A stretch of DNA of 64,000 nucleotides from a virus, in IMG/VR virus record IMGVR_UViG_3300042898_001429, positions 30,523 through 94,522 of that record, one strand, 5' to 3'. A model generated the notes under the pieces. It was not told the origin of the DNA and did not search any database. It saw nothing but the letters and a program-made list of their open reading frames with translations. The translations under genes were made by a program, and so were the position numbers. Below, one piece after another: positions 50,132-61,030 of this stretch; positions within the stretch are counted from its first letter, which is position 1; each line of letters starts with the position of its first letter.

Positions 50132-50248
50132 ATTTGGAATAGGGCTATGAAATCCCAGTTTTTCCGTTATCGCATTTTCCATTATGGGGCTATATGGGGT
50201 GTTGCTGGTCTTTGGGGGGTGGACCCTGCCCCCATACCCCGTGAAAAT

Positions 50249-50269: not shown

Positions 50270-50275
50270 ACTCTC

Positions 50276-50314
50276 ATCTTAGCACGGCTGAGGGGAAGCC
50301 GAGGGGGGGGGGGG
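50276..50314 (-). promoter_or_regulatory. Array promoter P1
   Basis: Minus-strand C12 tract and TCGGCT, 15 bp, -10 TAAGAT. The predicted +1 is 50269, 169 nt upstream of the 49861-50100 gene, so this is a leadered copy. It begins right at the end of the 50315-51040 gene. Confidence 0.75.
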
Positions 50315-50581
50315 TCAGTCTACTGAGACCGAGAACGTCATTTCTCCGAGGGCTTCACGCACTTTGTCTGTGAGGTCAAGGTTGTCCACCGCATTCTCTA
50401 CCGCCTGAGCGAATGAGTAGGACTCTGTGACATCATCCACGATGTCCTTGTCGTCAAATGCGCTCTCTACTGCGCTCTCAATCTCCACGGATACTTCCGC
50501 CATGACTTGCTTGACAATAAGGCTAATGAGTTGGGCGACTAGGTCGCTGGCTGTTGTTACTGGGCTTGTGTATGTTTCCAT
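50315..50581 (-). CDS. Nested in-frame product: C-terminal 88 aa from an internal leaderless start
   Basis: An 88-residue frame starting METYTSPVTTASDLVAQLIS, in the same frame as the 241-residue protein. Promoter P2 lies inside the larger gene and its -10 (TACGAT) ends 6 bp before this ATG, exactly as in the sixteen leaderless modules. Residues 12-88 are helical and acidic (VSVEIESAVESAFDDKDIVD). Alternatively it is only a remnant of a once-separate gene. Confidence 0.5.
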   Translation of the reverse strand: METYTSPVTTASDLVAQLISLIVKQVMAEVSVEIESAVESAFDDKDIVDDVTESYSFAQAVENAVDNLDLTDKVREALGEMTFSVSVD

Positions 50582-51040
50582 AACTCCATCGTAGGCGCTG
50601 GGCGCTGGAGCCGAGGGAGGGGGGGTCAGCGCCGCATTTACTTGCATAGTGCAACTAGATGTTTCACGTGAAACATTTTGAGGGCTATATGTTTCACGTG
50701 AAACATCGGAGGGGGATAAGGGCAGGCTTTCACCACGTACACGTGCATTCAGTATTGCTACACGCTCACAGGGCACCCACGCATCCAGCGTATCTATGTT
50801 CACGCCCACCATGTCCTCGCCCACCTCTACGAAGGCTCCAGCCTTGAGAGCATTCGCCCATGTATAAGCCTCTTCAGCCTGACGGAGGAATTGCCCAGCA
50901 AACTCCATAGTTCCAGCATCAGCCAGTTTCCCAGCCATATCTAGATAGTACTCACCAGCCACCCATATATGGTGCCCAAGTGAATAGCCTCCCATGTAGT
51001 AGTGGCGTGTCGTGTTGTGTGTTGTCGTGTCGTTGTTCAT
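50315..51040 (-). CDS. Hypothetical protein with linker carrying two parS sites; contains an internal gene start
   Basis: A 241-residue protein with three parts. The N-terminal helical part (EYYLDMAGKLADAGTMEFAG, AEEAYTWANALKAGAFVEVG) spans residues 1-100. The linker around residues 110-155 contains DVSRET and NVSRET, encoded by the two parS copies, and a Pro/Ala-rich stretch. The C-terminal helical part begins at METYTSPVTTASDLVAQLIS. An intact array promoter lies inside the linker, followed at the standard distance by this internal Met. It looks like a fusion of two formerly separate small genes. Function unknown. Promoter P3 drives it as a leaderless mRNA. Confidence 0.7.
   Translation of the reverse strand: MNNDTTTHNTTRHYYMGGYSLGHHIWVAGEYYLDMAGKLADAGTMEFAGQFLRQAEEAYTWANALKAGAFVEVGEDMVGVNIDTLDAWVPCERVAILNARVRGESLPLSPSDVSRETYSPQNVSRETSSCTMQVNAALTPPPSAPAPSAYDGVMETYTSPVTTASDLVAQLISLIVKQVMAEVSVEIESAVESAFDDKDIVDDVTESYSFAQAVENAVDNLDLTDKVREALGEMTFSVSVD
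50588..50626 (-). promoter_or_regulatory. Array promoter P2 (inside a gene)
   Basis: C-rich tract CCCCCCCTCCCTCGGCT, 15-bp spacer, -10 TACGAT, 6 bp, ATG at 50581. The spacing is intact despite lying within the 50315-51040 coding region. Confidence 0.7.
50660..50675. promoter_or_regulatory. parS site 2
   Basis: A perfect 16-bp TGTTTCACGTGAAACA palindrome within the linker of the 50315-51040 gene, encoding NVSRET. It is 30 bp from parS 3 and about 545 bp from parS 1. Confidence 0.85.
50690..50705. promoter_or_regulatory. parS site 3
   Basis: Another perfect copy, encoding DVSRET; with site 2 it flanks a 14-bp spacer. Three full matches in under 600 bp are very unlikely by chance. Confidence 0.85.
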
Positions 51041-51046
51041 GTCTTC

Positions 51047-51084
51047 ACCTTAGTCGTGTCGTGTTGTATCCGTGGGGGAGGGGG
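51047..51084 (-). promoter_or_regulatory. Array promoter P3
   Basis: CCCCCTCCCCCACGGAT (degenerate GGCT), 15 bp, TAAGGT, 6 bp, ATG at 51040: leaderless. Confidence 0.75.
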
Positions 51085-51105
51085 TGGTAGGTCGCTTGGC
51101 GCCGC

Positions 51106-51378
51106 CTAATCCAGCATCCCCATGTACTCTAGGTCTTCCATCGTGGAGGCGTATCCATCTAGGTCGTCTCCCAGTAGGTCAGCGATAATTCCACGTGCCT
51201 CTGCTCGGCTGTCTGCTCTGCATCCGCTCGTCTCGTAGTCGGAGCCGTTGAAGGCTTCGCACCCTTTGGCGCTGAAGTCTTTGGCGACTTTGGAGTAGGT
51301 CGTGCCCATCTCCTGTGCCACCTCGTGGAGCGTTTCGTTCTCCCAAGGTTCTCCGCAATTCCTGCAATATATGTCCAT
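51106..51378 (-). CDS. Cys-containing hypothetical protein (90 aa)
   Basis: A 90-residue protein; the ATG of MDIYCRNCGEPWENETLHEV is chosen because an SD (AAAGGG) lies 8 bp upstream, over an upstream GTG. The N-terminus has CRNCGEPW, and further Cys at KGCEAFNG and SGCRADSR suggest a zinc site. The C-terminus is helical and acidic. Leadered copy of the array module (P4). Confidence 0.65.
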   Translation of the reverse strand: MDIYCRNCGEPWENETLHEVAQEMGTTYSKVAKDFSAKGCEAFNGSDYETSGCRADSRAEARGIIADLLGDDLDGYASTMEDLEYMGMLD

Positions 51379-51415
51379 GTCGTTGCCCTTTCTAGTGGCG
51401 CTGGTTGATATCTCC

Positions 51416-51452
51416 ACCTTAGCCCACCCTCCTGTGAGCCAGTAGGGGGGGG
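51416..51452 (-). promoter_or_regulatory. Array promoter P4
   Basis: CCCCCCCCTACTGGCT, 15 bp, TAAGGT; predicted +1 at 51409, 31 nt upstream of the ATG. ATC stands where leaderless copies have ATG. Confidence 0.7.
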
Positions 51453-51474
51453 TGTCGTGTGGCGTGTCGTGTCG

Positions 51475-51867
51475 CTATCCGTACGTCACTTCTCCCAGCA
51501 TGGCGTACTGGAGGATGGCGTCTCCGTCTCCAGCGTCTAGGTCATCCCAGCGTGTCCACGGGCATTGTGCGATGATGGCATTGACTCCTCGTGCGATGTC
51601 ATTGACAGATAGCGCCTTCACGATTACCTTCGCAGGCTCGTCTGTCTCGTAGGTGTCAGGGTTAGCGATAGCCAACTTGAAGTAGATGGCGTCAGGGTCA
51701 GATGGAATGATATCCCAATCATATTCCTGAGCATATATGGGGGTTGTGCGCCACCAGTCGTAGCCTGCCTCGTCCCAGCCTGAACCCATTACGCCACTAA
51801 TTAGTTCCTTCGTGGGTACTGGCATGGTTATCTGTGTGTGTTGTGTGGTGTGTTGTGTCGTTGTCAT
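51475..51867 (-). CDS. Hypothetical protein (130 aa)
   Basis: A 130-residue acidic protein starting MTTTQHTTQHTQITMPVPTK. WDEAGYDWWRTTPIYAQEYD then WDIIPSDPDAIYFKLAIANP suggest an alpha/beta fold with many aromatics. Leaderless expression from P5. Not recognised. Confidence 0.65.
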   Translation of the reverse strand: MTTTQHTTQHTQITMPVPTKELISGVMGSGWDEAGYDWWRTTPIYAQEYDWDIIPSDPDAIYFKLAIANPDTYETDEPAKVIVKALSVNDIARGVNAIIAQCPWTRWDDLDAGDGDAILQYAMLGEVTYG

Positions 51868-51873
51868 GGTTTC

Positions 51874-51909
51874 ATCTTAGGGTGTGGTGTGGATAGCCGA
51901 GGGAGGGGG
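51874..51909 (-). promoter_or_regulatory. Array promoter P5
   Basis: CCCCCTCCCTCGGCT, 15 bp, TAAGAT, 6 bp, ATG at 51867: leaderless. Confidence 0.8.
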
Positions 51910-52233
51910 TCAGATGCTGAAGAACACGTGCCCATTGGTCTCCCAATAGTCGTGGCGTAGTTCACGTGCCCATGCCTTGTAGTCAATGAAGCCCACAAGG
52001 TGGTCGGGCACTTCTACCGTTTCGTCAAATAACTGCTCGGCAAAGTCTGCAAAGTCGTTATACTCACCACGGTATGAGTCAATGAAGCCAGCCACCTCTG
52101 ACTCGTAGTCGCTGTCAATGTGGTGGTTATCGCAATAGACCGCAAAGGCTTCGTGGTCAATGCCATGGTCTTGGCACAGCACCTGCACTTCTTCGTTATC
52201 GGCAATGTGTGTATATGTTTGGGTCGTTGTCAT
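51910..52233 (-). CDS. ArdA-like antirestriction protein
   Basis: A 107-residue protein. VAGFIDSYRGEYNDFADFAE then QLFDE matches the ArdA core ('f.daY.Geyds..dFA..l.de'), and GFIDYKAWARELRHDYWETN then GHVF the C-terminal part ('yiDye..arel..dy....G.vF'). ArdA mimics DNA and inhibits type I restriction enzymes. Shorter than full ArdA (about 165 residues), it keeps the middle and C-terminal modules. An antirestriction role fits an early leaderless gene (P6). Confidence 0.78.
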   Translation of the reverse strand: MTTTQTYTHIADNEEVQVLCQDHGIDHEAFAVYCDNHHIDSDYESEVAGFIDSYRGEYNDFADFAEQLFDETVEVPDHLVGFIDYKAWARELRHDYWETNGHVFFSI

Positions 52234-52601
52234 ACACTCACCTTAGCCTGTGGCGTGTCTAGCCGAGGGAGGGGGTGTGCTTCGCACCATTGGCACAGCC
52301 AGCGCACAGCATCGTCAGGTGTGTCGTTACACTCGTAGCCGTCAATGGGGTCGCCGTTGTCGTATCGTGCCCTGTCGCCGTCTAGTTCCCAGCGTGTTGA
52401 GTAGGTACTGGTGGTGTCGTCATAGAACTCATCGGCGTCTGCTACTTCGCCCACTACCCACACCTCTCCAGCGATAGTGCCCTCATAGGCACGTCCCATA
52501 GACCAGTTGTACCCAGCATTCTTATTGAGTGTGAATGTCACACGTTCACCATTACAGTAATCGTAGATAATCTTGGGTGTTTGCGTTTTGTTCGTTGTCA
52601 T
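52230..52601 (-). CDS. Hypothetical protein (123 aa)
   Basis: A 123-residue protein: NGERVTFTLNKNAGYNWSMG, then GTIAGEVWVVGEVADADEFY and RARYDNGDPIDGYECNDTPD. It looks like a small beta fold with a C-terminal helix carrying WLCQWCEAHPLPRL. Its last 15 codons run through promoter P6 and stop at the next ATG (ATGA). Leaderless start from P7. Not recognised. Confidence 0.65.
   Translation of the reverse strand: MTTNKTQTPKIIYDYCNGERVTFTLNKNAGYNWSMGRAYEGTIAGEVWVVGEVADADEFYDDTTSTYSTRWELDGDRARYDNGDPIDGYECNDTPDDAVRWLCQWCEAHPLPRLDTPQAKVSV
52240..52275 (-). promoter_or_regulatory. Array promoter P6
   Basis: CCCCCTCCCTCGGCT, 15 bp, TAAGGT, 6 bp, ATG at 52233: leaderless. It lies inside the end of the 52230-52601 gene. 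Confidence 0.8.
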
Positions 52602-52607
52602 ATCTGT

Positions 52608-52643
52608 ACCTTAGTCGTTGTCCGTGTTAGCGGAGGTAGGGGG
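52608..52643 (-). promoter_or_regulatory. Array promoter P7
   Basis: CCCCCTACCTCCGCT, 15 bp, TAAGGT, 6 bp, ATG at 52601: leaderless. The TAA of the -10 is the stop codon of the 52611-52772 gene. Confidence 0.8.
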
Positions 52644-52772
52644 TGTGTCGTTGATGCCCGCAAGTTCTAGTGCCTCTGCGTGCTCCATGTCCATGTTGAG
52701 TATTCGTGCGATGCCGTAGGCTAGTGCCCGTGTCATTGCATTGGTGAAGTCGTTGTCTGTGTCGTTGCTCAT
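52611..52772 (-). CDS. Small leaderless gene (53 aa)
   Basis: A 53-residue frame: MSNDTDNDFTNAMTRALAYG then IARILNMDMEHAEALELAGI, a short helical domain. The C-terminal TPPTSANTDND is encoded by the promoter P7 element, and the stop TAA is part of that promoter's -10. Leaderless start from P8. Function unknown. Confidence 0.7.
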   Translation of the reverse strand: MSNDTDNDFTNAMTRALAYGIARILNMDMEHAEALELAGINDTPPTSANTDND

Positions 52773-52778
52773 GTTCAT

Positions 52779-52816
52779 ACTTTACTTGTTGGTGTTGGTA
52801 GCCAAAGGGGAGGGGG
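52779..52816 (-). promoter_or_regulatory. Array promoter P8
   Basis: CCCCCTCCCCTTTGGCT, 15 bp, TAAAGT, 6 bp, ATG at 52772: leaderless. The -10 TAA is the stop of the 52782-52997 gene. Confidence 0.8.
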
Positions 52817-52997
52817 TGAGTAGAGTCTCAAATAATTCTTTGGTCTTATTGAAACTGTCATCTTCATAGACAATGGTGTTATCTACGTTGTCCCACACGT
52901 GATACCACGTGCCTCCGTCGTAGTCGTGGTTAGTGTCCACACATTTGCTTAGTTCATAACGTCCATCTTGGGACTTCATGCGTGTTGTCGTTGTCAT
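52782..52997 (-). CDS. Small leaderless gene (71 aa)
   Basis: A 71-residue protein: MTTTTRMKSQDGRYELSKCV, then YDGGTWYHVWDNVDNTIVYE, a WW-like or small beta fold. Tail TPSPLATNTNK comes from promoter P8. Leaderless start from P9. Not recognised. Confidence 0.65.
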   Translation of the reverse strand: MTTTTRMKSQDGRYELSKCVDTNHDYDGGTWYHVWDNVDNTIVYEDDSFNKTKELFETLLTPSPLATNTNK

Positions 52998-53003
52998 ATT
53001 CTC

Positions 53004-53041
53004 ATCTTAGTTGTTGCTCGTGGTAGCGAGGGGGGAGGGGG
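53004..53041 (-). promoter_or_regulatory. Array promoter P9
   Basis: CCCCCTCCCCCCTCGCT, 15 bp, TAAGAT, 6 bp, ATG at 52997: leaderless. The -10 TAA is the stop of the 53007-53318 gene. Confidence 0.8.
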
Positions 53042-53318
53042 TCAGGAGTTTCTTCATTCCGATAGGGTAGCGCTTGACCGTTCCGTCAGGCTCAATGCGG
53101 AATGAGCCACACGTTGTTGCCAGCCATTGGTGTTCACCGTTTGGCGTTAGGCGAGATACGGAGCCTGTCATGGCACCGTCACGCTGTTCACGTCCTAGTT
53201 CAATCACGTACTCCACGCCATTGACAACATACACGTTGCTCTTTCCTGTGGCGTCTACACATAGTTGAACCCATTGGCGGTATGTGTCATCTGCATCTTG
53301 TCGGCATGAGTAGCCCAT
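53007..53318 (-). CDS. Hypothetical protein (103 aa)
   Basis: A 103-residue protein starting MGYSCRQDADDTYRQWVQLC, then VNGVEYVIELGREQRDGAMT and GSFRIEPDGTVKRYPIGMKK, a beta-rich fold. An SD (AAAGGA) lies about 10 bp before the ATG in a 26-nt leader from P10. The tail TPSPLATTSNN is promoter-encoded. Not recognised. Confidence 0.65.
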   Translation of the reverse strand: MGYSCRQDADDTYRQWVQLCVDATGKSNVYVVNGVEYVIELGREQRDGAMTGSVSRLTPNGEHQWLATTCGSFRIEPDGTVKRYPIGMKKLLTPSPLATTSNN

Positions 53319-53350
53319 TATCGTTGTCCTTTGTTCGTTGCGATGTCTTC

Positions 53351-53386
53351 ATCTTAGTTTGTCGTTGTTATAACCAGTAGGGGGGG
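53351..53386 (-). promoter_or_regulatory. Array promoter P10
   Basis: CCCCCCCTACTGGTT, 15 bp, TAAGAT; predicted +1 at 53344 reads ATC where other copies have ATG; leadered, ATG at 53318. Confidence 0.75.
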
Positions 53387-53526
53387 TAGTCGTATGTTTC
53401 ACACTTCGTCTGCGTGACCATTGGTGGCTCTACCTGCCACCCTCGTATTATCTGACCATACTTGTCAGACTGACACTTTATCTCCCTGCCAGCAAATGGG
53501 ATGTTTAGGTGAATATCTCTCGTCAC
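53368..53526 (-). CDS. Possible small protein from GTG (52 aa)
   Basis: A 52-codon frame from GTG to a stop within promoter P10: VTRDIHLNIPFAGREIKCQS, then QIIRGWQVEPPMVTQTKCET and a YDYPPYWL tail encoded by the C-rich tract. Ending inside the promoter, as neighbouring genes do, supports it. No clear SD or array promoter precedes it. The rest of the gap to 53629 holds two hairpins. Confidence 0.4.
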   Translation of the reverse strand: MTRDIHLNIPFAGREIKCQSDKYGQIIRGWQVEPPMVTQTKCETYDYPPYWL

Positions 53527-53579
53527 GCCCTAACGTATGACTTACTCAGGCGATATCCTGCCTGTACCTAGTTTCCATA

Positions 53580-53634
53580 CCTCCCACACCCCCTAGGTTG
53601 GATGTGGGAGGTCTTAGGGGTTTGTTGCCCTAAG
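53580..53634 (-). terminator. Tandem hairpins after the 53630-53860 gene
   Basis: CTTAGGG/CCCTAAG (53613-53619 with 53628-53634, 8-nt loop) is followed by CCTCCCACA/TGTGGGAGG (53580-53588 with 53603-53611, 14-nt loop). On the minus strand they come in that order right at the stop codon. A transcription break or mRNA stabiliser is likely; no U-run. Confidence 0.55.
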
Positions 53635-53860
53635 AACTTTGTAATTCTTTACACGGATGCGTGGTATATGTACCGAGTTCACCCATGATGGCGTGTGCCT
53701 CCTGAAGGCTTGAAGCAAACAATGAAATGTCTGCTTTACCTACGTGGATAGCGACGATAGCAAAGTTGCCAAAGTCAGTTACCCTTGCGGAAATGTGTGA
53801 TGCCTCCACGTGATGGAAAGATATCCCTGTCAGTATTGGTTGTGTTGTTTCGTTGCTCAT
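53630..53860 (-). CDS. Small leaderless gene (76 aa)
   Basis: A 76-residue protein: MSNETTQPILTGISFHHVEA then ARVTDFGNFAIVAIHVGKAD, a small beta-alpha fold (SLFASSLQEAHAIMGELGTY). Leaderless start from P11. Followed by tandem hairpins. Not recognised. Confidence 0.65.
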   Translation of the reverse strand: MSNETTQPILTGISFHHVEASHISARVTDFGNFAIVAIHVGKADISLFASSLQEAHAIMGELGTYTTHPCKELQSS

Positions 53861-53866
53861 GTCTTC

Positions 53867-53903
53867 ATCTTACTTTCTTGTTGTTGTAGCCGAGGGGGAG
53901 GGG
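53867..53903 (-). promoter_or_regulatory. Array promoter P11
   Basis: CCCCTCCCCCTCGGCT, 15 bp, TAAGAT, 6 bp, ATG at 53860: leaderless. Confidence 0.8.
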
Positions 53904-54236
53904 TTAGGAATACTGGACGTCACCGAAGAAACCGTATTGCCACACATAGTCACGCTCGTGTGAGTCTGTCTCCATGCGTATGAGTTCCTGAGTTTCTTCT
54001 TGTGAGTGTGCTAGTGCATACAACCTGAGTCCACGTAGTAGTGTCTCGGTGTCATACGTCAGTATTACGTTGTCTTCGTACGTGAACCATAGTTCACCGC
54101 TTGGGTATTCTTCCGTTTCGTAATAACCAGCCCAATGGCGAGTGCCATCGTTGCTCTTCATAAAGTCCACCCATTCGTCTGTGACGATTAGTGAATACTC
54201 TACTTTTACTTCGTATCGTGTTTGTGTCGTTGTCAT
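53904..54236 (-). CDS. Hypothetical protein (110 aa)
   Basis: A 110-residue protein: MTTTQTRYEVKVEYSLIVTD, then HWAGYYETEEYPSGELWFTY and LRLYALAHSQEETQELIRME. An antiparallel sheet followed by helices, no motif known. Leaderless from P12. Confidence 0.65.
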   Translation of the reverse strand: MTTTQTRYEVKVEYSLIVTDEWVDFMKSNDGTRHWAGYYETEEYPSGELWFTYEDNVILTYDTETLLRGLRLYALAHSQEETQELIRMETDSHERDYVWQYGFFGDVQYS

Positions 54237-54242
54237 GTTCTT

Positions 54243-54278
54243 ATCTTACTTTCCTGTGATGTTAGCCAAGGGGGAGGG
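54243..54278 (-). promoter_or_regulatory. Array promoter P12
   Basis: CCCTCCCCCTTGGCT, 15 bp, TAAGAT, 6 bp, ATG at 54236: leaderless. Confidence 0.8.
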
Positions 54279-54665
54279 TCACCACGTACGTTGCCAGTTA
54301 TCGCCCATTTGTTCTGTGAGCATCTTCATCTCACGCTTGGTTACGCTTGCTACGTCTTTCCAGTTGCTGAATGCACGTGTCAAGCCCATTGCCAACCTAC
54401 ACGCCAGTTCTGCCCAGTCTTCTAGTGTTGGGTCTTCGTGGTTCTCATTAGCCTGTGCAGTCTCAATAAGCACGATGTCTGCTAGGCATTGTGGGCAGTA
54501 TTGCCCTCTTACACGCTCTCCCTCTTCGTACGCCCATCCAGTACCGTGGTCGTAGTGAGTCCATGTGCGCTTTGTCAATGGGTGTTTTTCCTCATTGTCA
54601 AAATCGTTACAACCATCGCACTTGTCGTTGGTCTTTCCAGTTTCTGTAATTTGTGTCGTTGTCAT
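54279..54665 (-). CDS. Zinc-binding hypothetical protein (128 aa)
   Basis: A 128-residue protein. TNDKCDGCNDFDNEEKHPLT and RGQYCPQCLADIVLIETAQA supply two CxxC pairs for a zinc site. The C-terminal half is helical (LACRLAMGLTRAFSNWKDVA). Might bind nucleic acid. Leaderless from P13. Confidence 0.68.
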   Translation of the reverse strand: MTTTQITETGKTNDKCDGCNDFDNEEKHPLTKRTWTHYDHGTGWAYEEGERVRGQYCPQCLADIVLIETAQANENHEDPTLEDWAELACRLAMGLTRAFSNWKDVASVTKREMKMLTEQMGDNWQRTW

Positions 54666-54671
54666 GTTCGT

Positions 54672-54707
54672 ATCTTAGGTCGTGGTATTACAAGCCGAGG
54701 GGGAGGG
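54672..54707 (-). promoter_or_regulatory. Array promoter P13
   Basis: CCCTCCCCCTCGGCT, 15 bp, TAAGAT, 6 bp, ATG at 54665: leaderless. The upstream 58-residue gene stops inside its spacer. Confidence 0.8.
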
Positions 54708-54864
54708 TCAGGTCACGGTCACACTTGATACAAATGCACCCTGACTCACCTGTCAATGCAGAGTCACAGTCGTAGGGCAAGCGTTCATATATCACTAAGA
54801 TGTCCAGCGTAGAAGGCTCTCCGCAATGGTCACAGAATGTAATGTGGTCGTTGCGATTACTCAT
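54688..54864 (-). CDS. Zinc-finger microprotein (58 aa)
   Basis: A 58-residue protein with FCDHCGEPSTLDILVIYERL and GCICIKCDRDLTLPLGL: two CxxC pairs of a zinc ribbon. The tail TLPLGL comes from promoter P13. Start overlaps the upstream stop by one base (TAATG), so it is co-translated with the 54864-55106 gene. Confidence 0.72.
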   Translation of the reverse strand: MSNRNDHITFCDHCGEPSTLDILVIYERLPYDCDSALTGESGCICIKCDRDLTLPLGL

Positions 54865-55106
54865 TAGAGATTGTCTCCGTGTTGGTCGGTGTAGAGGAGG
54901 TCTTTGGTGCCATTGCTCCTGAAGTCATCCTCTACCAACATTTCCACGTACTCCATGACATCATCATAGGTGACTTCTATGTCGGCATCACCTCTGTTGT
55001 CTTGATGTATCGTGCGCACTATCTCTTCCACGTCATACGTGAATACACGCATTACGTTGATGTGTGTGATGGTGTCTTGTGAGTCGGGGTTGATTATCGT
55101 TGTCAT
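54864..55106 (-). CDS. Small leaderless gene (80 aa)
   Basis: An 80-residue acidic protein: MTTIINPDSQDTITHINVMR, then YDVEEIVRTIHQDNRGDADI and VTYDDVMEYVEMLVEDDFRS. Alpha/beta, acidic, possibly DNA-mimicking. Leaderless from P14. Not recognised. Confidence 0.65.
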   Translation of the reverse strand: MTTIINPDSQDTITHINVMRVFTYDVEEIVRTIHQDNRGDADIEVTYDDVMEYVEMLVEDDFRSNGTKDLLYTDQHGDNL

Positions 55107-55112
55107 GTCTTT

Positions 55113-55148
55113 ATCTTACGGGATGAGTACGTCAGCCAAGGTAGGGGG
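55113..55148 (-). promoter_or_regulatory. Array promoter P14
   Basis: CCCCCTACCTTGGCT, 15 bp, TAAGAT, 6 bp, ATG at 55106: leaderless. The -10 TAA is the stop of the 55116-55574 gene. Confidence 0.8.
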
Positions 55149-55574
55149 TGTCTGACCATCGTCATACAGTCTTCCTTGCTTCGTGTAGTCCACGTTGCCT
55201 AGGTTGCTCACCATGACACTAAGGTCGTACTGGTGATAGGTCGTACCGTCATATGTGAGATGTTGCTTCGGTGCTACAAACGCTGGTGAGCATGGGCATT
55301 GGCAGTATGCGTATTGGTTCCATTGCATTCTAGAGCCATCAAAATCTAGTCCTGCCTCAGCAAGGATGCGTAGTGCGTGTTTCTTGTACTCAGCGTGTGG
55401 ACGTCGTGTGCGATTGTTGAGGTTGTCTAAGACAGTCTCAGTATCTGAGTCTCCCCATACCGACACTCGTGGTCGTACGTTCATGCGGAATGCTGTCATG
55501 TTCCTAGTCCACGTGCGTGGTTGGATGTAGATAGTTCCACTTGGTGTTGTGATTGTTATGTCGTTGTTGCTCAT
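55116..55574 (-). CDS. Hypothetical protein (152 aa)
   Basis: A 152-residue protein starting MSNNDITITTPSGTIYIQPR. It has a conserved-looking basic/Arg-rich part (TVLDNLNNRTRRPHAEYKKH), a Cys cluster (YAYCQCPCSPAF) that may bind metal, and a C-terminus ending TPPTLADVLIP, encoded by promoter P14. Leaderless from P15. Not recognised. Confidence 0.65.
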   Translation of the reverse strand: MSNNDITITTPSGTIYIQPRTWTRNMTAFRMNVRPRVSVWGDSDTETVLDNLNNRTRRPHAEYKKHALRILAEAGLDFDGSRMQWNQYAYCQCPCSPAFVAPKQHLTYDGTTYHQYDLSVMVSNLGNVDYTKQGRLYDDGQTPPTLADVLIP

Positions 55575-55810
55575 GACTTCACCTTAGTCCACCAACGCTT
55601 TAGCCGAGGGGGAGGGGTTGAATACTTAGTGATGGGTGTACCCTTCAGAGCGCCTAACTCAACAATGGTTACATCACTTCCATTCTCGTACCATTCTTCC
55701 AATAGAAACTTCTCGTACTCGTCTAGTGTGTCTGTGTCTACTACGACCACCTGTGGGTCATAATTGAGGACTGTGCCTGTCACCATGTCAATAAGAATAA
55801 TGTTGCTCAT
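55571..55810 (-). CDS. Small hypothetical protein (79 aa)
   Basis: A 79-residue protein: MSNIILIDMVTGTVLNYDPQ, then VVDTDTLDEYEKFLLEEWYE. A beta start and an acidic helix, with the tail TPPPRLKRWWTKVKS running through promoter P15 to an ATGA stop. Translationally coupled to the gene upstream. Not recognised. Confidence 0.65.
   Translation of the reverse strand: MSNIILIDMVTGTVLNYDPQVVVVDTDTLDEYEKFLLEEWYENGSDVTIVELGALKGTPITKYSTPPPRLKRWWTKVKS
55581..55617 (-). promoter_or_regulatory. Array promoter P15
   Basis: CCCCTCCCCCTCGGCT, 15 bp, TAAGGT, 6 bp, ATG at 55574: leaderless. It lies in the end of the 55571-55810 gene. Confidence 0.8.
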
Positions 55811-56052: not shown

Positions 56053-56058
56053 ATCTTT

Positions 56059-56094
56059 ACTTTAGTTGTCGTTGTGTGTAGCCAAGGGAGAGGG
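56059..56094 (-). promoter_or_regulatory. Array promoter P16
   Basis: CCCTCTCCCTTGGCT, 15 bp, TAAAGT, 6 bp, ATG at 56052: leaderless. Confidence 0.8.
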
Positions 56095-56589
56095 TCACCA
56101 TGATGACTGGTAGGAGAACTCCCAACCCCATCCACTAGTGTCTGACAGCGTGGGGTCATTCAGCAGTTGTTCAAGGGTAAGCGCCGTGTATAAGACGTCA
56201 TTGTAGTATTGCTCATTCACGTCAGTATCTCCAAAGAAGAACCCCGACGAAGTTGGCAGTACCTCTTCTGAGAAGGCATTGTCACGCTTTGCGTACACTT
56301 GCCTGCAAAGGTCTAACAATGTTTCTAAGTTCTCTTTGCTAACGTAATACGAACGGCAGTCGTCCTCGCCACCCTGTACGTTGTTCACGAACCAGTTGTG
56401 GATTTGGTTTGCTTTGCGCCATTGCCCTACCTTGATAGTGACTTCAGCAGATGGCATATTGTCAGTAATAAATAAATGTGAAACTTTCAATGCCTTTGCT
56501 ATTTCAGCAAAAGTGTTCTTGTCTGTGTCGTTGCTGTGGTCTGCGCCTGAAACGTATTTCTTAGCGGAGAGGTATTGGTCTAATCCCAT
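56095..56589 (-). CDS. Conserved-looking phage protein (164 aa), function unknown
   Basis: A 164-residue protein of a type I associate with many phages: MGLDQYLSAKKYV start, QWRKANQIHNWFVNNVQGGE ('WRK.n.IH.WFv.n...G.D'), and LPTSSGFFFGDTDVNEQYYN ('LP...GfFfG...yde.Y'). The strong pattern suggests a conserved function not yet known. Leadered module: P17, 34-nt leader with AAGGA before the ATG. Confidence 0.72.
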   Translation of the reverse strand: MGLDQYLSAKKYVSGADHSNDTDKNTFAEIAKALKVSHLFITDNMPSAEVTIKVGQWRKANQIHNWFVNNVQGGEDDCRSYYVSKENLETLLDLCRQVYAKRDNAFSEEVLPTSSGFFFGDTDVNEQYYNDVLYTALTLEQLLNDPTLSDTSGWGWEFSYQSSW

Positions 56590-56629
56590 GTCGTTGTCCT
56601 TTTTGTTGTTTGTTGTTTGGTTTAGTTGT

Positions 56630-56665
56630 ATTTTATCTCAGCACGTTTGTAGCCGAGGGAGGGGG
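56630..56665 (-). promoter_or_regulatory. Array promoter P17
   Basis: CCCCCTCCCTCGGCT, 15 bp, TAAAAT; predicted +1 at 56623, leader of 34 nt with an AAGGA SD before ATG at 56589. Confidence 0.75.
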
Positions 56666-56668
56666 TTG

Positions 56669-57088
56669 TTAGTCATTACCATTTACTGTGTCAATAACTA
56701 TTTGGCATACTGTGTCTAGGACATCAGCAGGCATACCTTCTAGGTACGCAAGAAGGTTATCTTGTAGTCTTTGCTTTAATTCTTTTACTTCTTCACCCTC
56801 ATACGAAATGTAAGTATCTATTGCAACTTCTACGTAGTCAGTCCACGGCTCGCTGGTCACGAAGTAACCAATGCGATTTACAAACGCTTTTCCAGCGACA
56901 ATAAGTGTTCCTTCATCACCGTCTACCCATGTCCACACATTGTTTTCGGGTTGTTCGTGTACGAAGTCAAACTCGGTGTCGTAGGTCTCAAACATAGTGC
57001 CATTCCATGATGCGTCAGTATCTAGGTGGTTGGTAATAGGCTTGTATTGTTTTTCCCATTGGTCTTCAGTAATTTGTGTGTCGTTCAT
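56669..57088 (-). CDS. Hypothetical protein (139 aa)
   Basis: A 139-residue acidic protein; ATG of MNDTQITEDQWEKQYKPITN overlaps the stop of the upstream gene (TAATG). GTMFETYDTEFDFVHEQPEN and VWTWVDGDEGTLIVAGKAFV read as a beta fold, followed by a helical end (EVKELKQRLQDNLLAYLEGM). Not recognised. Confidence 0.65.
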   Translation of the reverse strand: MNDTQITEDQWEKQYKPITNHLDTDASWNGTMFETYDTEFDFVHEQPENNVWTWVDGDEGTLIVAGKAFVNRIGYFVTSEPWTDYVEVAIDTYISYEGEEVKELKQRLQDNLLAYLEGMPADVLDTVCQIVIDTVNGND

Positions 57089-57321
57089 TAGATGACCCAC
57101 ACTTCTACGTCATCTAGGTCTGTGTCATCAAGTGATAATTGGTTGATAATAAAACCCTTGCCGTTTTCTGCTGGGTCACTAGGTTCACTTACCGTAACGT
57201 TGGTAATCCACTCTTCTGCAAAAGTATCAGCGTTCCAATCACTTGGGATTTCTGCTTCTACTGTGACAGACAATTTGATTGTTTGCGTAAAACGTATTTT
57301 GTTCATTTGTTGGTTGTTCAT
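57088..57321 (-). CDS. Small leaderless gene (77 aa)
   Basis: A 77-residue protein: MNNQQMNKIRFTQTIKLSVT, then IPSDWNADTFAEEWITNVTV, a beta-alpha-beta fold with an acidic end. Leaderless from P18. Not recognised. Confidence 0.65.
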   Translation of the reverse strand: MNNQQMNKIRFTQTIKLSVTVEAEIPSDWNADTFAEEWITNVTVSEPSDPAENGKGFIINQLSLDDTDLDDVEVWVI

Positions 57322-57327
57322 GTTCTT

Positions 57328-57363
57328 ATCTTATCTTTTGTTGTGCATAGCCAAGGGGGAGGG
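57328..57363 (-). promoter_or_regulatory. Array promoter P18
   Basis: CCCTCCCCCTTGGCT, 15 bp, TAAGAT, 6 bp, ATG at 57321: leaderless. It starts directly next to the long hairpin. Confidence 0.8.
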
Positions 57364-57442
57364 TAAGCCCTGTGAGGAGTGTTCCGCTTCTATCGTAGGG
57401 CAACGACGAACTACGAGAGCGAAACACCCCTCACAAGGCTTA
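57364..57442 (-). ncRNA. 79-nt imperfect inverted repeat, likely structured RNA (about 30 bp)
   Basis: Left arm 57364-57398 and right arm 57411-57442 pair over 25 positions, then a small bulge (5 against 2 nt) and 5 more pairs around a 12-nt loop. The three positions that are not Watson-Crick pairs are C-A or A-C on the plus strand but G-U wobbles on the minus strand, so only the transcript sense forms the full helix. It sits between the stop of the 57440-57625 gene and promoter P18. Confidence 0.65.
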
Positions 57443-57625
57443 CCACTCGTGATAGCGAATGGTGCTGATTATAATAGCGCCAACAAAGCACATCATGATG
57501 CCTAAAAAACCCCACCACAATGATGCGCTTTCAATAGTGAACCCTAGCATCATGCCCGTGGCGTAGAGAACTACGATGGCTCTCTTCTTGGCTCTAGTCC
57601 ATTTGACCCAGTTAGTGACGTGCAT
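57440..57625 (-). CDS. Small membrane protein (61 aa)
   Basis: A 61-residue protein with two hydrophobic helices (KRAIVVLYATGMMLGFTIES and WWGFLGIMMCFVGAIIISTI), a basic N-terminus (MHVTNWVKWTRAKK) and a short tail. Could be a superinfection-exclusion or membrane-modifying protein. Overlaps the upstream gene by one base and its stop lies in the long hairpin. Confidence 0.65.
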   Translation of the reverse strand: MHVTNWVKWTRAKKRAIVVLYATGMMLGFTIESASLWWGFLGIMMCFVGAIIISTIRYHEW

Positions 57626-57897
57626 TAGAAATCACGCTCTACTAACTCATAGCCCATGACTAAGTCAATGTACCAAGAGTCATCTACTTGAAACTCTGCT
57701 TCATGCTGTGCAATGGCTTTTAGCAAACGTTGTTGCTCGTGGTCAGTAAAGTAGTAGAACACTTCGTCATCAGGTATTCCATATGAGTCATGCTTCATGT
57801 CTGTCTCATAATCATATGTGCCGAATGATACGTAAAAGTATTCAGGGTCTTCGTTGAGCCACACTACGTGGCACTTTATTCCAATAATTGTTGTCAT
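57625..57897 (-). CDS. Small hypothetical protein (90 aa)
   Basis: A 90-residue protein: MTTIIGIKCHVVWLNEDPEY then FYVSFGTYDYETDMKHDSYG, and an acidic helical end (LLKAIAQHEAEFQVDDSWYI). Leadered module from P19 with a 12-nt leader (AGAGG). Not recognised. Confidence 0.65.
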   Translation of the reverse strand: MTTIIGIKCHVVWLNEDPEYFYVSFGTYDYETDMKHDSYGIPDDEVFYYFTDHEQQRLLKAIAQHEAEFQVDDSWYIDLVMGYELVERDF

Positions 57898-58163
57898 CGT
57901 GTTACCTCTACCTTTACTTTACTGTGGAGTGTATTGAGCCGAGGGAGGGGGGCACGAGATAAGCGCACAGGAGGAGACACATGGAATGCCTTACCCCATT
58001 GCATATCATCTTCTGCCACAACGTCCTCGTACTCAACTACTTTGCCTTGCTCGTGGTCAATGAAGAGCAGTAGATTGCCTGCGTGGTCAATGTGTATCCC
58101 GACATACCAATCGTCCATGTGTAGGTACGATGTGCCGTCTCGCTGAACGATATTGTTATTCAT
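57894..58163 (-). CDS. Small hypothetical protein (89 aa)
   Basis: An 89-residue protein; the ATG of MNNNIVQRDGTSYLHMDDWY is chosen, overlapping the upstream stop by 8 bp. VGIHIDHAGNLLLFIDHEQG then EYEDVVAEDDMQWGKAFHVS is an antiparallel sheet. Tail APLPRLNTLHSKVKVEVTR runs through promoter P19 to ATGA. Not recognised. Confidence 0.65.
   Translation of the reverse strand: MNNNIVQRDGTSYLHMDDWYVGIHIDHAGNLLLFIDHEQGKVVEYEDVVAEDDMQWGKAFHVSPPVRLSRAPLPRLNTLHSKVKVEVTR
57916..57952 (-). promoter_or_regulatory. Array promoter P19
   Basis: CCCCCCTCCCTCGGCT, 15 bp, TAAAGT; predicted +1 at 57909, 12-nt leader, ATG at 57897. It lies in the end of the 57894-58163 gene. Confidence 0.75.
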
Positions 58164-58344
58164 CGTATTCCACAATTTCCCATGGTCTGTCCCAGCCCAC
58201 AGAGCCATCTGAGTCTTCTGACTTTAGTTGGTCATCATCATAAGAGTTGTAGATGTTCTCTGCCTCTTCTGCCGACTCTGCCTCAATCACGTACATATGA
58301 CTGACGTTTTCAGTTACATAAACTGCGTATTGTTTCTTGCTCAT
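58156..58344 (-). CDS. Small hypothetical protein (62 aa)
   Basis: A 62-residue protein; the start MSKKQYAVYVTENVSHMYVI is preferred to a longer frame because its ATG overlaps the upstream stop (ATGA) and AAAGG lies 8 bp upstream. EAESAEEAENIYNSYDDDQL is a helix with acidic residues, a pattern similar to small DNA-mimic proteins. Not recognised. Confidence 0.65.
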   Translation of the reverse strand: MSKKQYAVYVTENVSHMYVIEAESAEEAENIYNSYDDDQLKSEDSDGSVGWDRPWEIVEYDE

Positions 58345-58514
58345 CTCTGAGACCTTTCTATTTGTTTGGTTTCGGTTGCTATTACTTCTTGTGTGGTGTC
58401 TACACACACGGACTCGTTCCATCCGAACTTGAGTGTTGCCTCATATGCGCTGTCTGCTTCTACTTCATGTACGTGACGAGTGATTATTTCATATGTCATG
58501 GTGTATAAAGGCAT
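58341..58514 (-). CDS. Small hypothetical protein (57 aa)
   Basis: A 57-residue frame: MPLYTMTYEIITRHVHEVEA then YEATLKFGWNESVCVDTTQE. Its fold pattern (strand, 'VeAdSayEA', strand) resembles that of the neighbouring 62-residue protein ('IeAeSaeEA'), so the two may be paralogues. TAATG and ATGA overlaps on its two sides. Confidence 0.68.
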   Translation of the reverse strand: MPLYTMTYEIITRHVHEVEADSAYEATLKFGWNESVCVDTTQEVIATETKQIERSQR

Positions 58515-58837
58515 TACTTATTCCAATCTGTTGGGAAAGGAATGGGGATTTCGTATTCCTCATCGTAGTTGGGTACACCATTGACTACTGGGTAAGCAAG
58601 GCAGACAATGTCTGTCAAGTTACGGCTGACGTAGTTGAGGTCTACCCTGTCGCCAAAGGCAAACCAGTAGTCCATCTCTTCAATGTCATATCCGCTTGGC
58701 TCATCCAGTTGTTTGCGATAATCGGTGAGCATATCATCTAGTTTTTCCTTGATGGCGTGCTCAACTGCAAAAGCAGTAATCTGCTCAAGGTTGCGCTGGA
58801 TGTAGTGGAATGTATCGTCATATTCTTGTGGGGTCAT
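58514..58837 (-). CDS. Leaderless gene (107 aa)
   Basis: A 107-residue protein: MTPQEYDDTFHYIQRNLEQI, then AIKEKLDDMLTDYRKQLDEP and YWFAFGDRVDLNYVSRNLTD. Helical first half, acidic, Tyr-rich. First gene of a four-gene coupled set from P20. Not recognised. Confidence 0.65.
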   Translation of the reverse strand: MTPQEYDDTFHYIQRNLEQITAFAVEHAIKEKLDDMLTDYRKQLDEPSGYDIEEMDYWFAFGDRVDLNYVSRNLTDIVCLAYPVVNGVPNYDEEYEIPIPFPTDWNK

Positions 58838-58843
58838 GTCATT

Positions 58844-58881
58844 ACCTTAGTTGTTAGTGGGTTGAGCCGAGGGGGAGGGGG
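58844..58881 (-). promoter_or_regulatory. Array promoter P20
   Basis: CCCCCTCCCCCTCGGCT, 15 bp, TAAGGT, 6 bp, ATG at 58837: leaderless. The -10 TAA is the stop of the 58847-59008 gene. Confidence 0.8.
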
Positions 58882-59008
58882 TCACGGGTTTGGCTAACCA
58901 TGTCCGTAACGATTTGCATTCTTTACAGAATTGGTCGCCCATGGCATTTCTTATTACTGCCTTAGTTTCTAAGCAGTAGTCACATGTATCTGTTCGTGTT
59001 GTTTCCAT
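58847..59008 (-). CDS. Zinc-finger microprotein (53 aa)
   Basis: A 53-residue frame with METTRTDTCDYCLETKAVIR and DQFCKECKSLRTWLAKP: two CxxC pairs of a zinc knuckle. The C-terminal TPSPSAQPTNN is encoded by promoter P20 and the stop lies in its -10. Leaderless start from P21, divergent to the helicase. Confidence 0.74.
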   Translation of the reverse strand: METTRTDTCDYCLETKAVIRNAMGDQFCKECKSLRTWLAKPVTPSPSAQPTNN

Positions 59009-59014
59009 AACCCC

Positions 59015-59055
59015 ACTTTAGTTTGTAGGGTTGGTAGCCAATGGGGAGGGGGGGG
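59015..59055 (-). promoter_or_regulatory. Array promoter P21
   Basis: CCCCCCCCTCCCCATTGGCT, 15 bp, TAAAGT, 6 bp, ATG at 59008: leaderless. Back to back with P22. Confidence 0.78.
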
Positions 59056-59088
59056 TCTCCCTCGGCTCGGTAATGAGTGTGCCAAGAT
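59056..59088 (+). promoter_or_regulatory. Array promoter P22 (plus strand)
   Basis: TCTCCCTCGGCT, 15 bp, CAAGAT (weak first base); predicted +1 at 59095 and a 14-nt leader with GGAG before the helicase ATG at 59109. Divergent to P21. Confidence 0.7.
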
Positions 59089-59108
59089 GGGCACAAGCAA
59101 GGAGACAC

Positions 59109-60992
59109 ATGAACGGCATTACACCAAGACAGCAACGTGACATACATGATGCACTAGAACAACGCATGACCCCACTAGAAATGGTTGGGTGCATTGACGA
59201 ATGGATTAGTTCCATGGAGTTAGACAAACTGACGTTCAAGTCAGCATCCACATTGCTGGATTACTTAGCGTATCTTCCCGTAGAAAGAACGCCTGCGCTG
59301 GCTCACATCCCTGAAGAAGCCACACGCATAATTGTAAATACCGCTAAGGGCAAGTGCCACCTATGCAATGAGATAATCACTGCTGGTCAAGGGCACAAAG
59401 CCTTCATAAATGGTGCGTGGTGGATTTTTCATGCCGTTGATAAGTGCCCTGCCGTAAGTGTCGTAAATGACATCGTGTATTCCTCACAGTTACGACCAGC
59501 ACTTGATGAGTTTGTACAAACTTTAGACAAGGTAGAGGCACAGATTATCCCTGATGAGGCTTTGTTCAAGTTGTCAAGTTCTAAGGATTTTGACCTAGAT
59601 TTTGACCTAGAACTACCACTCCTTGGTTACCAAAGGTCGGCTGTTGAATACGTACGCCGTACCCATCGCACGTTGGTATGTCAGGACATGGGGCTTGGTA
59701 AGACACCGATTGGTATTGCTGTAGCGCATATGGCAGTAACCGAGGGTTACAAGGTAATGATTTCAGTACCTCCAAACCTTCTGTACCAATGGGGTGCTGA
59801 GATAAAGAGGTTCGCCCCTTGGCTCAAGGTGGCATCTATCAAGGGTCGTAAGACATACAAGTTGCCAAAGTGTGACGTGTTGTTAGTGCCTGACTCCATC
59901 ATTGACTCATGGCAGAACAAACTTGTCGGTAAGTTCACCAGTCTCATTGTTGATGAGGCACACCGCTTCAAGAGTGAGACAAGCAACCGCACTAGAGGCT
60001 TGTCTCTTATCGCCTCACAGGTTCCCAAAGATGGTTACTGTGTCCTGCTATCGGGAACTATTATTCCTAATCGCCCCTCAGAGTTTATTTCACCGTTGAA
60101 GATTATCGGGAGGCTTGACCCCATCTTTGGTACTAAGAGGCAGTTCCTCATTCGCTATTGCGATTACCAAATAGTCAACGGGTTTCCGTACACAAAGGGA
60201 GCCACCAACACCACGGAACTCAATGAGATACTCAGGAGCACCGTCTACTCACGTACTCGTAAAATTGACGTGTTAGAAGACCTACCCCCTAAGCGCAGAG
60301 CACAACTAGACATAGAATTATCCGATAGTTCTATGAACAAGTACCGCAATGCTGAGGCAGACTTCCTTGCTTGGGTCATGGAGAACTACGGGGCGGATGC
60401 GCACAAAGCGGCGAGCAAGGCTCCAGTCATCACAGAGATAAATAAACTTAGGCAGTTGCTTGGTGAGGCAAAGGTGGAGCCAGCGTGCGCTCACATCCGC
60501 TCACTGCTGGAGGCAGGAGAACAGGTCATTGCATTCGCATACCATTCCAGCGTCATCAACGCTCTCAAGGAACACTTCAAGAATGATGGAGTTGTCGTTG
60601 TTGCTGGTGGCATGACTGCCGAAGCCAAGAACAATGCCGTTACTAAGTTCACCAATGGTGAGGCTCGTTTGTTCATTGGACAGTACGAAGCAGCGAGTGT
60701 CGGTCTCAACCTTCAAGTTGCCAGCCACGTGGTCATGGTTGAAATACCATGGTCACCAAGTGTTGGTGCACAAGCAGAGGACAGGGCATGGCGCTATGGC
60801 GTCAAGAACGCCGTAGTTGCTTGGTGGCTGACAGCCATTGACCCCAATGCACCAACCATTGACGCTCGTATGTGGCGTATATGTAATGCCAAGCAAGAGA
60901 GCATCTCAGCATGTCTTGATGGTTGGGCTGAGGACATGAACGCCGAGGCAGGTAGTGTGACAGCCCTTCTCCTTGAAGAGATGATGTCATGA
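59109..60992 (+). CDS. SNF2-type DEAD/H helicase/ATPase
   Basis: A 627-residue protein from the ATG at 59109, which has GGAG 5 bp upstream. A frame starting further left would begin inside promoter P21/P22 and is rejected. An N-terminal region holds KGKCHLCNEIITAGQGHKAF and a later Cys (C113), a likely zinc site. The SNF2-like motor has Walker A QDMGLGKTPIG (193-199), VDEAH (282-285), LLSGTIIPNRPSE and the C-terminal VEIPWSPSVGAQAEDRAWRY (motif VI). It may remodel DNA or displace bound proteins. Its stop codon overlaps the next promoter. Confidence 0.85.
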   Translation: MNGITPRQQRDIHDALEQRMTPLEMVGCIDEWISSMELDKLTFKSASTLLDYLAYLPVERTPALAHIPEEATRIIVNTAKGKCHLCNEIITAGQGHKAFINGAWWIFHAVDKCPAVSVVNDIVYSSQLRPALDEFVQTLDKVEAQIIPDEALFKLSSSKDFDLDFDLELPLLGYQRSAVEYVRRTHRTLVCQDMGLGKTPIGIAVAHMAVTEGYKVMISVPPNLLYQWGAEIKRFAPWLKVASIKGRKTYKLPKCDVLLVPDSIIDSWQNKLVGKFTSLIVDEAHRFKSETSNRTRGLSLIASQVPKDGYCVLLSGTIIPNRPSEFISPLKIIGRLDPIFGTKRQFLIRYCDYQIVNGFPYTKGATNTTELNEILRSTVYSRTRKIDVLEDLPPKRRAQLDIELSDSSMNKYRNAEADFLAWVMENYGADAHKAASKAPVITEINKLRQLLGEAKVEPACAHIRSLLEAGEQVIAFAYHSSVINALKEHFKNDGVVVVAGGMTAEAKNNAVTKFTNGEARLFIGQYEAASVGLNLQVASHVVMVEIPWSPSVGAQAEDRAWRYGVKNAVVAWWLTAIDPNAPTIDARMWRICNAKQESISACLDGWAEDMNAEAGSVTALLLEEMMS

Positions 60993-61030
60993 CCCCCTCC
61001 CCCTTGGCTTTAAGACCGAACAGATAATAT
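60993..61030 (+). promoter_or_regulatory. Array promoter P23 (plus strand)
   Basis: CCCCCTCCCCCTTGGCT, 15 bp, TAATAT (best -10 of the set); predicted +1 at 61037. The 40-nt leader contains GGGAC-AAC-GTCCC (61041-61053) and AAGGA before the ATG at 61077. Confidence 0.8.

What the first reader, a model, noticed from the sequence alone, without database searches (positions are those of the whole stretch)
50276..61030. Array of 23 near-identical promoter modules with fixed spacing
From 50.3 to 61.0 kb the element C(3-12)T/A C(2-5) (C/T)GGCT - 15 bp - TAnnnT recurs 23 times (21 minus, 2 plus) and always points at the next gene in its own direction. In 16 modules the gap from the GGCT element to the first base of ATG is exactly 27 bp (15+6+6), without exception. 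The -10 reads mostly TAAGAT, TAAGGT or TAAAGT; TAnnnT is the established actinobacterial -10. A short 15-bp spacer from GGCT suggests an activated or unusual -35. This looks like a phage-wide early regulon of single-gene promoters. It recalls start-associated sequences of cluster K mycobacteriophages but differs in sequence and position.
Basis: partly seen in the sequence, partly recalled or inferred. Interest (0 to 1): 0.93.

Follow-up and report, generated by a model that had tools for sequence, protein, structure and literature searches.

The report
Phage promoter array with switchable boxes
A bacterial virus drives about twenty small genes each from its own copy of one promoter with no untranslated leader, and close relatives keep the same genes and start signals but have swapped the upstream recognition word at every gene together, as expected if a fast-changing viral protein reads that word.

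Summary
23 modules lie at 50,276-61,030 (21 minus, 2 plus), all with exactly 15 bp from the (C/T)GGCT box to the -10; 16 have the ATG exactly 6 nt after the -10 (27 bp from the box). The full pattern occurs 13 times against 0.01 expected. The modules are confined to this region of a 94.5-kb actinophage record. The best reading is mostly leaderless, single-gene promoters for host sigma-A RNA polymerase whose -35 zone (-45 to -28) holds a phage-specific box. New here: relatives have the same genes, -10 (TAAGRT) and 6-nt gap, but a different box at each equivalent gene: ACGCA/TAGCA, AGCAC, AGGATTTGGACA, AGGATTTGGATG, AGGATTCGTCAC, AGGATTCGTCCA, AGGATTCGTGAC. Across orthologues the box's 3' half is 25-33% identical, the spacer 58%, the -10 90-94%. 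A TTGACA/TAGACT leaderless promoter in the same phages is unchanged, so the host sigma factor has probably not changed. The phage has no detectable sigma factor, integrase or cI-type repressor, but two WhiB-like proteins, one inside the regulon. I infer a phage activator working with sigma-A, like WhiB7 or T4 MotA; its identity is not shown (covariation test negative). 'Phage-wide' is wrong; 'early' is untested.

The parts
50276..50315 (-). module 1: C12-CTCGGCT-N15-TAAGAT, followed at once by hairpin 50242-50276; no ORF follows
50588..50626 (-). module 2: CCCTCGGCT-N15-TACGAT, leaderless start 50581 (88 aa), inside and in frame with ORF 51040-50315
   Evidence: kept with another box in L113
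51047..51090 (-). module 3: CCCACGGAT-N15-TAAGGT, leaderless start 51040
51416..51455 (-). module 4: CTACTGGCT-N15-TAAGGT, leadered, start 51378 after GAAAGGG
51874..51910 (-). module 5: CCCTCGGCT-N15-TAAGAT, leaderless start 51867
52240..52279 (-). module 6: CCCTCGGCT-N15-TAAGGT, leaderless start 52233
52608..52648 (-). module 7: ACCTCCGCT-N15-TAAGGT, leaderless start 52601
52779..52822 (-). module 8: CCTTTGGCT-N15-TAAAGT, leaderless start 52772
53004..53042 (-). module 9: CCCTCGCT-N15-TAAGAT, leaderless start 52997
53351..53390 (-). module 10: CTACTGGTT-N15-TAAGAT; ATC stands where ATG is expected; start 53318 after AAAGGA
53867..53910 (-). module 11: CCCTCGGCT-N15-TAAGAT, leaderless start 53860
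54243..54279 (-). module 12: CCCTTGGCT-N15-TAAGAT, leaderless start 54236
54672..54708 (-). module 13: CCCTCGGCT-N15-TAAGAT, leaderless start 54665
55113..55151 (-). module 14: ACCTTGGCT-N15-TAAGAT, leaderless start 55106
55581..55624 (-). module 15: CCCTCGGCT-N15-TAAGGT, leaderless start 55574
56059..56095 (-). module 16: CCCTTGGCT-N15-TAAAGT, leaderless start 56052
56630..56673 (-). module 17: CCCTCGGCT-N15-TAAAAT, leadered, start 56589 after AAAAGGA
57328..57367 (-). module 18: CCCTTGGCT-N15-TAAGAT, leaderless start 57321
57916..57952 (-). module 19: CCCTCGGCT-N15-TAAAGT, leadered (18 nt), start 57897 after AGAGG
58844..58882 (-). module 20: CCCTCGGCT-N15-TAAGGT, leaderless start 58837
59015..59056 (-). 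module 21: CCATTGGCT-N15-TAAAGT, leaderless start 59008; back to back with module 22
59060..59088 (+). module 22: CCTCGGCT-N15-CAAGAT, leadered with AAGGAG before SNF2 start 59109
61002..61030 (+). module 23: CCTTGGCT-N15-TAATAT, leadered with AAGGAA before DUF932 start 61077
59109..60992 (+). SNF2-type helicase gene, first gene behind module 22
61077..62108 (+). DUF932 gene behind module 23
62105..62446 (+). Wbl1, WhiB-like protein in the module-23 operon; candidate reader of the box

Best explanation
The array is a regulon of mostly single-gene promoters used by the host's sigma-A RNA polymerase. Sigma-A reads the -10 (TAAGAT/TAAGGT), and transcription starts at or near the A of ATG, so most mRNAs are leaderless. 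In place of a normal -35 element each promoter carries a box at -45 to -28, read by a phage-encoded activator that touches sigma region 4 and DNA together. The likeliest candidate is the phage WhiB-like protein Wbl1, which lies in an operon behind one of these promoters and would activate its own gene. Each phage lineage has changed activator specificity and box together. Shown by sequence: box, -10, spacing, start distance and concerted replacement. Inferred: the transcription start, the need for an activator, and Wbl1's role.
For: Number, spacing and start distance are far beyond chance. Seven box types in the window phage and relatives each have one dominant box-to--10 distance and one dominant distance to ATG. 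Orthologue by orthologue, -10 identity is 0.90-0.94 and ATG 1.0, while the box 3' half is 0.25-0.33, below the spacer's 0.58-0.59. Bases most conserved within a phage are thus least conserved between phages. A close relative (L210/L091/L263; proteins compared 95-100% identical) has already changed GGCT to CGCT at most sites seen. The TTGACA-N17/18-TAGACT(or TAAACT)-N6-ATG promoter of the epimerase gene is kept in six box groups, so host sigma preference has probably not changed. No Sigma70_r2 or r4 in G000, G001 or G002. Two Wbl proteins; Wbl1 aligns with Streptomyces WhiB (8dy7, E=4e-12). Wbl1 sits behind DUF932 and its module in every box-array relative where it could be read, and relatives without these boxes have Wbls with other C-termini. 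Published WhiB7 binds SigA region 4 and DNA just upstream of the -35 and activates its own gene (PMC3905903).
Against: No transcription start is mapped. Wbl1 distance does not track box distance once DUF932 distance is removed (partial r=-0.09, permutation p=0.74, n=11), so covariation gives Wbl1 no support beyond phylogeny. The box is long and base-specific, more than known Wbl-DNA contacts would suggest, so a separate DNA-binding partner (as WhiA for WhiB) is possible. The Wbl1 model is poor (mean pLDDT 53). Several box types rest on few modules.
Confidence: 0.6

Rival explanations
1. Operator array: the box is bound by a phage repressor that blocks all these promoters at once, as with cluster A stoperators; box divergence is immunity-type divergence.
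For: Many sites in one region, mostly one orientation and with lineage-specific consensus, as described for stoperators (PMC6550527). A box over the -35 zone would suit a repressor.
Against: Every box is locked at one distance from a -10, which a repressor does not need; most stoperators are not promoter-associated (PMC6550527). No integrase or HTH_3 repressor found in G000, G001 or G002. The box replaces rather than overlaps a recognisable TTGACA, so without an activator the promoters look weak.
Confidence: 0.15
2. Host sigma-A alone uses these promoters; the box is an unusual but sufficient -35/UP region, and its change between phages reflects different hosts.
For: The -10 is a good actinobacterial TAnnnT; the box covers the -35 position; box D (TTTGGACA) resembles TTGACA.
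Against: Boxes differ completely between phages whose proteins are 74-75% identical, while the TTGACA promoter of the same phages is unchanged. No TTGACA-type excess in the array.
Confidence: 0.15
3. A host alternative sigma factor, or a phage sigma factor not recognised here, reads both box and -10.
For: Two fixed elements with fixed spacing would suit a dedicated sigma factor; cultured 'Ca. Planktophila' phages carry one (PMC10202952).
Against: No Sigma70_r2 or r4 match in G000, G001 or G002 (G001 and G002 may be fragments). The -10 stays sigma-A-like and unchanged while the box changes; one sigma factor changing only its -35 half this fast would be unusual.
Confidence: 0.08
4. The repeats are homogenised by gene conversion or spread as a gene-cassette boundary, without a trans-acting reader.
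For: Small genes come and go between relatives together with their modules.
Against: Within a phage the 15-bp spacers between box and -10 differ from gene to gene, and they stay 58-59% identical between orthologues while the adjacent 6 bp turn over. Conversion tracts would have carried the spacer along.
Confidence: 0.05
5. The C-tract acts in RNA, as a Rho-type or 3'-end signal of the upstream gene.
For: In the window phage the tract often begins at the upstream stop codon (TGACCCC).
Against: Many of the relatives have AGGATT boxes with no C-tract at the same place; the element is locked to the downstream -10.
Confidence: 0.03

Closest known systems
WhiB7-type Wbl activation of sigma-A promoters (PMC3905903)
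   Same: Wbl protein present; element next to and upstream of the -35 in promoters with a sigma-A -10; activator gene inside its own regulon
   Different: The box is C-rich or AGGATT plus a specific 3' half, not AT-rich; Wbl1's tail has no AT-hook (RGRP); the box replaces the -35; binding not tested
T4 middle promoters (MotA box, sigma appropriation; PMC2988021)
   Same: Phage word in the -35/-30 zone with a sigma-70-type -10 and near-fixed spacing; many promoters
   Different: MotA box is centred at -30, 12+/-1 bp from the -10; box here is at -45 to -28; no MotA or AsiA match seen in the family searches made; leaderless
Cluster K ESAS (PMC3203893, PMC11373665)
   Same: Repeated promoter-like element upstream of many small actinophage genes, consensus differs by subcluster
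   Different: ESAS is an imperfect inverted repeat around SigA-like -10 and -35; here asymmetric, no inverted repeat, no TTGACA, usually leaderless
Cluster A stoperators (PMC6550527)
   Same: Many asymmetric sites in one orientation; lineage-specific consensus shifting in concert
   Different: Stoperators are repressor sites mostly outside promoters; here each is locked to a -10
Leaderless actinobacterial promoters
   Same: TAnnnT with ATG 6 nt downstream
   Different: Upstream box and array organisation

Membership tests
Leaderless actinobacterial promoters | TAnnnT -10 with ATG 6-7 nt downstream | tested here: met
   16 of 23 modules; relatives the same
Leaderless actinobacterial promoters | Mapped transcript 5' end at the start codon | not testable with these tools
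   needs RNA from infected cells
Wbl (WhiB7-type) regulon | Wbl protein encoded, with four cysteines | tested here: met
Wbl (WhiB7-type) regulon | AT-rich site upstream of a SigA -35 hexamer | tested here: not met
   Box is C-rich or AGGATT; no TTGACA-like excess
Wbl (WhiB7-type) regulon | AT-hook (RGRP) in the Wbl C-terminus | tested here: not met
   Wbl1 ends ...GIWAGTYPHHRKRLFRQFKVTGILEPQEVV
Wbl (WhiB7-type) regulon | Wbl binds sigma region 4 and the site | not testable with these tools
   host sigma not in hand; box covariation gave no support
T4 sigma appropriation | MotA box 12+/-1 bp upstream of the -10 | tested here: not met
   GGCT ends 15 bp upstream; sequence unrelated
T4 sigma appropriation | MotA and AsiA homologues | tested here: inconclusive
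   none among the hits printed in family scans of part of the proteome; hit lists were cut at 25
Cluster K ESAS | 17-bp imperfect inverted repeats with a 4-13 bp spacer | tested here: not met
   module register shows no paired repeat; box asymmetric
Cluster A stoperator/repressor system | repressor and temperate genes | tested here: not met
   no integrase or HTH_3 match in G000, G001, G002; other repressor types not excluded
Phage sigma-factor promoters | phage-encoded sigma factor | tested here: not met
   no Sigma70_r2 or r4

The most novel reading that the evidence does not exclude
A phage WhiB-like protein (or an unknown partner) gives host sigma-A a new, phage-private -35 word, and this word is rewritten across a 20-promoter regulon within short evolutionary times, possibly so that each phage's genes answer only to its own activator.
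Probability: 0.3. Interest if true: 0.8.

Novelty: new variant of a known kind. Interest (0 to 1): 0.62.

Why it matters
Many actinophages carry WhiB-like genes whose targets are mostly unknown. Here a candidate regulon of about 20 promoters can be read directly, with at least seven natural box variants that keep the rest of the promoter constant. That makes a ready set for testing how an activator and its sites change together, and how a Wbl protein may choose DNA. It is also a natural library of leaderless single-gene expression modules.

Tried and rejected
Wbl1-box covariation: no signal beyond phylogeny. MerR-like protein (L010:3872-4324) as reader: present in 11 of 12 records including those without these boxes. 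HTH_36 protein (L010:9852-10472): not limited to box-array phages. Phage sigma factor, integrase, HTH_3: none. Cultured relatives by terminase (Streptomyces phage LuckySocke, 47%): its small-gene regions have leadered genes and no such array. Exact search for the GGCT module in IMG/VR: 10 contigs with one hit each, taken as chance or unrelated, so the box is private to this lineage (very near records may be left out). Rfam: nothing. AlphaFold of Wbl1: too poor to use. Host search by terminase in GTDB genomes: one Chloroflexi MAG contig, uninformative.
Full report
WHAT IS THERE. The window is bases 30,523-94,522 of a 94,522-base virus record. The phage has a contractile-tail sheath, portal and terminase, DNA polymerase, RecA, helicase and primase and two WhiB-like proteins, which points to an actinobacterial host. 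The nearest cultured phages by terminase are mostly Streptomyces myophages at 45-47%. GC is about 44%, as in phages of 'Ca. Nanopelagicales' (PMC10202952); that host is a guess.

THE ARRAY. There are 23 modules, 21 minus and 2 plus, all with 15 bp between the last base of the GGCT box and the -10; in 16 the ATG follows after exactly 6 nt. The pattern with ATG occurs 13 times against 0.01 in shuffles. No module lies in the other 83 kb. The six modules with a distant start have Shine-Dalgarno-like sequence before it. In the 16 leaderless genes CAACGA lies within the first 24 coding bases in 11, against 1 of 92 other minus-strand ORFs (p=1.4e-10), so the module seems to extend past the start codon; whether this helps translation is unknown.

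RELATIVES. Searches with terminase, DUF932, SNF2 and an array protein brought in related contigs. Their own arrays were found by looking for a -10 six bases before an ATG, not by looking for the box. In register, with the -10 at -12 to -7, the boxes are: window, C-tract then (C/T)GGCT; L210/L091/L263, mostly (C/T)CGCT; L093, L096, L113 and L114, CCCCTACCCC(A)(C/T)GCA or TAGCA; L098 and L115, C-tract then AGCA(C); L099 and L101, AGGATTTGGACA; L194-L196, AGGATTTGGATG; L197, AGGATTCG(T/C)(T/C)ACT; L193, AGGATTCGTCCA; G001 (L220), AGGATTCGTGAC. In the seven sets measured, the box-to--10 distance has a single dominant value. Two pattern scans of 2.9 million viral contigs gave hits on about 8 contigs each, nearly all already known as relatives here (the few new ones carry box types already seen).

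CONCERTED SWITCHING. For 12 orthologous genes of the window and L113 (mean 74% protein identity), mean column identity is 0.94 in the -10, 1.0 at ATG, 0.59 in the spacer and 0.33 in the box 3' half. For 8 genes shared with L115 the figures are 0.90, 1.0, 0.58 and 0.25. Gene conversion would have carried the spacer with the box, so a changed reader is the simpler cause. The leaderless promoter of the epimerase gene in the same phages keeps TTGACA-N17/18-TAGACT (TAAACT in L101) across six box groups, so the host sigma factor is unlikely to have changed.

MECHANISM. The -10 and start distance fit sigma-A. The array has no excess of TTGACA-type promoters, so an activator is likely. No sigma-70 region 2 or 4, integrase or HTH_3 domain was found in the three records tested. 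Wbl1 (62,105-62,446) lies behind DUF932 and module 23, so it would be in its own regulon; it aligns best with Streptomyces WhiB chains 8dy7 and 8dy9 (from memory, these are transcription-complex structures). Published WhiB7 works by binding sigma-A region 4 and DNA next to the -35, and activates its own gene (PMC3905903); in WhiB1 arginines of helix 4 are needed for DNA binding (PMC6282962). In Wbl1 the matching stretch differs between box groups (PHHRKRLFRQFK, PNHRKRLFRQYK, PSDRRKLFAEFK, PEDRRKLFASFK, PEQRRPIVRRFK). But a partial Mantel test finds no link between Wbl1 and box beyond general divergence (r=-0.09, p=0.74), and Wbl1 varies quickly everywhere. Wbl1 is therefore the leading candidate and no more; I put it at about 0.4. 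I put promoter identity and leaderless starts at about 0.9, and a phage-encoded reader at about 0.7.

OTHER RELATIVES. Records with terminases 80-84% identical but without these boxes (G005, G007, G003) seem to have leaderless promoters of other kinds (TATACT after ...AAATAGCCC; TACACT or TACGAT after CCTATCCTG). Leaderless small-gene promoters may thus be general in the group, with the -35-zone box a feature of one branch.

COMPARISON WITH KNOWN SYSTEMS. It works like an activator-dependent phage promoter class (T4 MotA box; WhiB7 regulon; cluster K ESAS), but defining features of each were tested and not met (see membership test), so I file it under none of them. The concerted lineage-specific drift of many sites is known for cluster A stoperators, which are repressor sites mostly outside promoters.

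LIMITS. All evidence is from sequence. Some box types rest on few modules or fragments. Habitat and host are not shown. ArdA was matched in a set scan that does not name the member; assigning it to 51,910-52,233 is my reading of the sequence.

Noticed in passing
window 50116-50131, 50660-50675, 50690-50705: Three copies of TGTTTCACGTGAAACA, which I recognise as the bacterial parS consensus, at the distal end of the array. L113 has two; L220 (G001) has three TGTTCCACGTGGAACA at the matching end. No ParB_N match in G000 or G002 and only a sub-threshold one in G001.
   Followed up: partly
window 50315-51040 (-), internal start 50581: A 241-aa gene holds an in-frame internal module that would make its last 88 residues as a separate leaderless product. 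Both starts, with a changed box, are kept in L113.
   Followed up: partly
window 50242-50315 (-): Module 1 is followed at once by a 14-bp hairpin (-23.9 kcal/mol, z -4.4) and a short T run: a promoter running straight into a likely terminator, perhaps a very short RNA or a decoy.
   Followed up: partly
window 57362-57444 (-): Very stable long hairpin (about 83 nt, -58 kcal/mol, z -7.5) just upstream of module 18; no Rfam match.
   Followed up: partly
first 24 nt of leaderless genes: CAACGA occurs in 11 of 16 leaderless genes against 1 of 92 other ORFs; related CAAC(A/G)A in 13 of 23 in L220.
   Followed up: partly
window 53339-53390 (-): Module 10 has ATC where the leaderless ATG would be; the gene starts 32 nt after the -10 at 53318 behind AAAGGA, as if a lost leaderless start was replaced.
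   Followed up: no
window 53560-53633 (-): Two adjacent stable hairpins in a region without a clear gene (z -3.4).
   Followed up: no
L245, L246, L247: Relatives without these boxes show leaderless starts with other motifs: AAATAGCCC before TATACT, and CCTATCCTG before TACACT or TACGAT.
   Followed up: partly
L009:583-1014 (-): Second WhiB-like protein with an added conserved HGSWIRYRQGCRCSDC segment, kept in many relatives.
   Followed up: no
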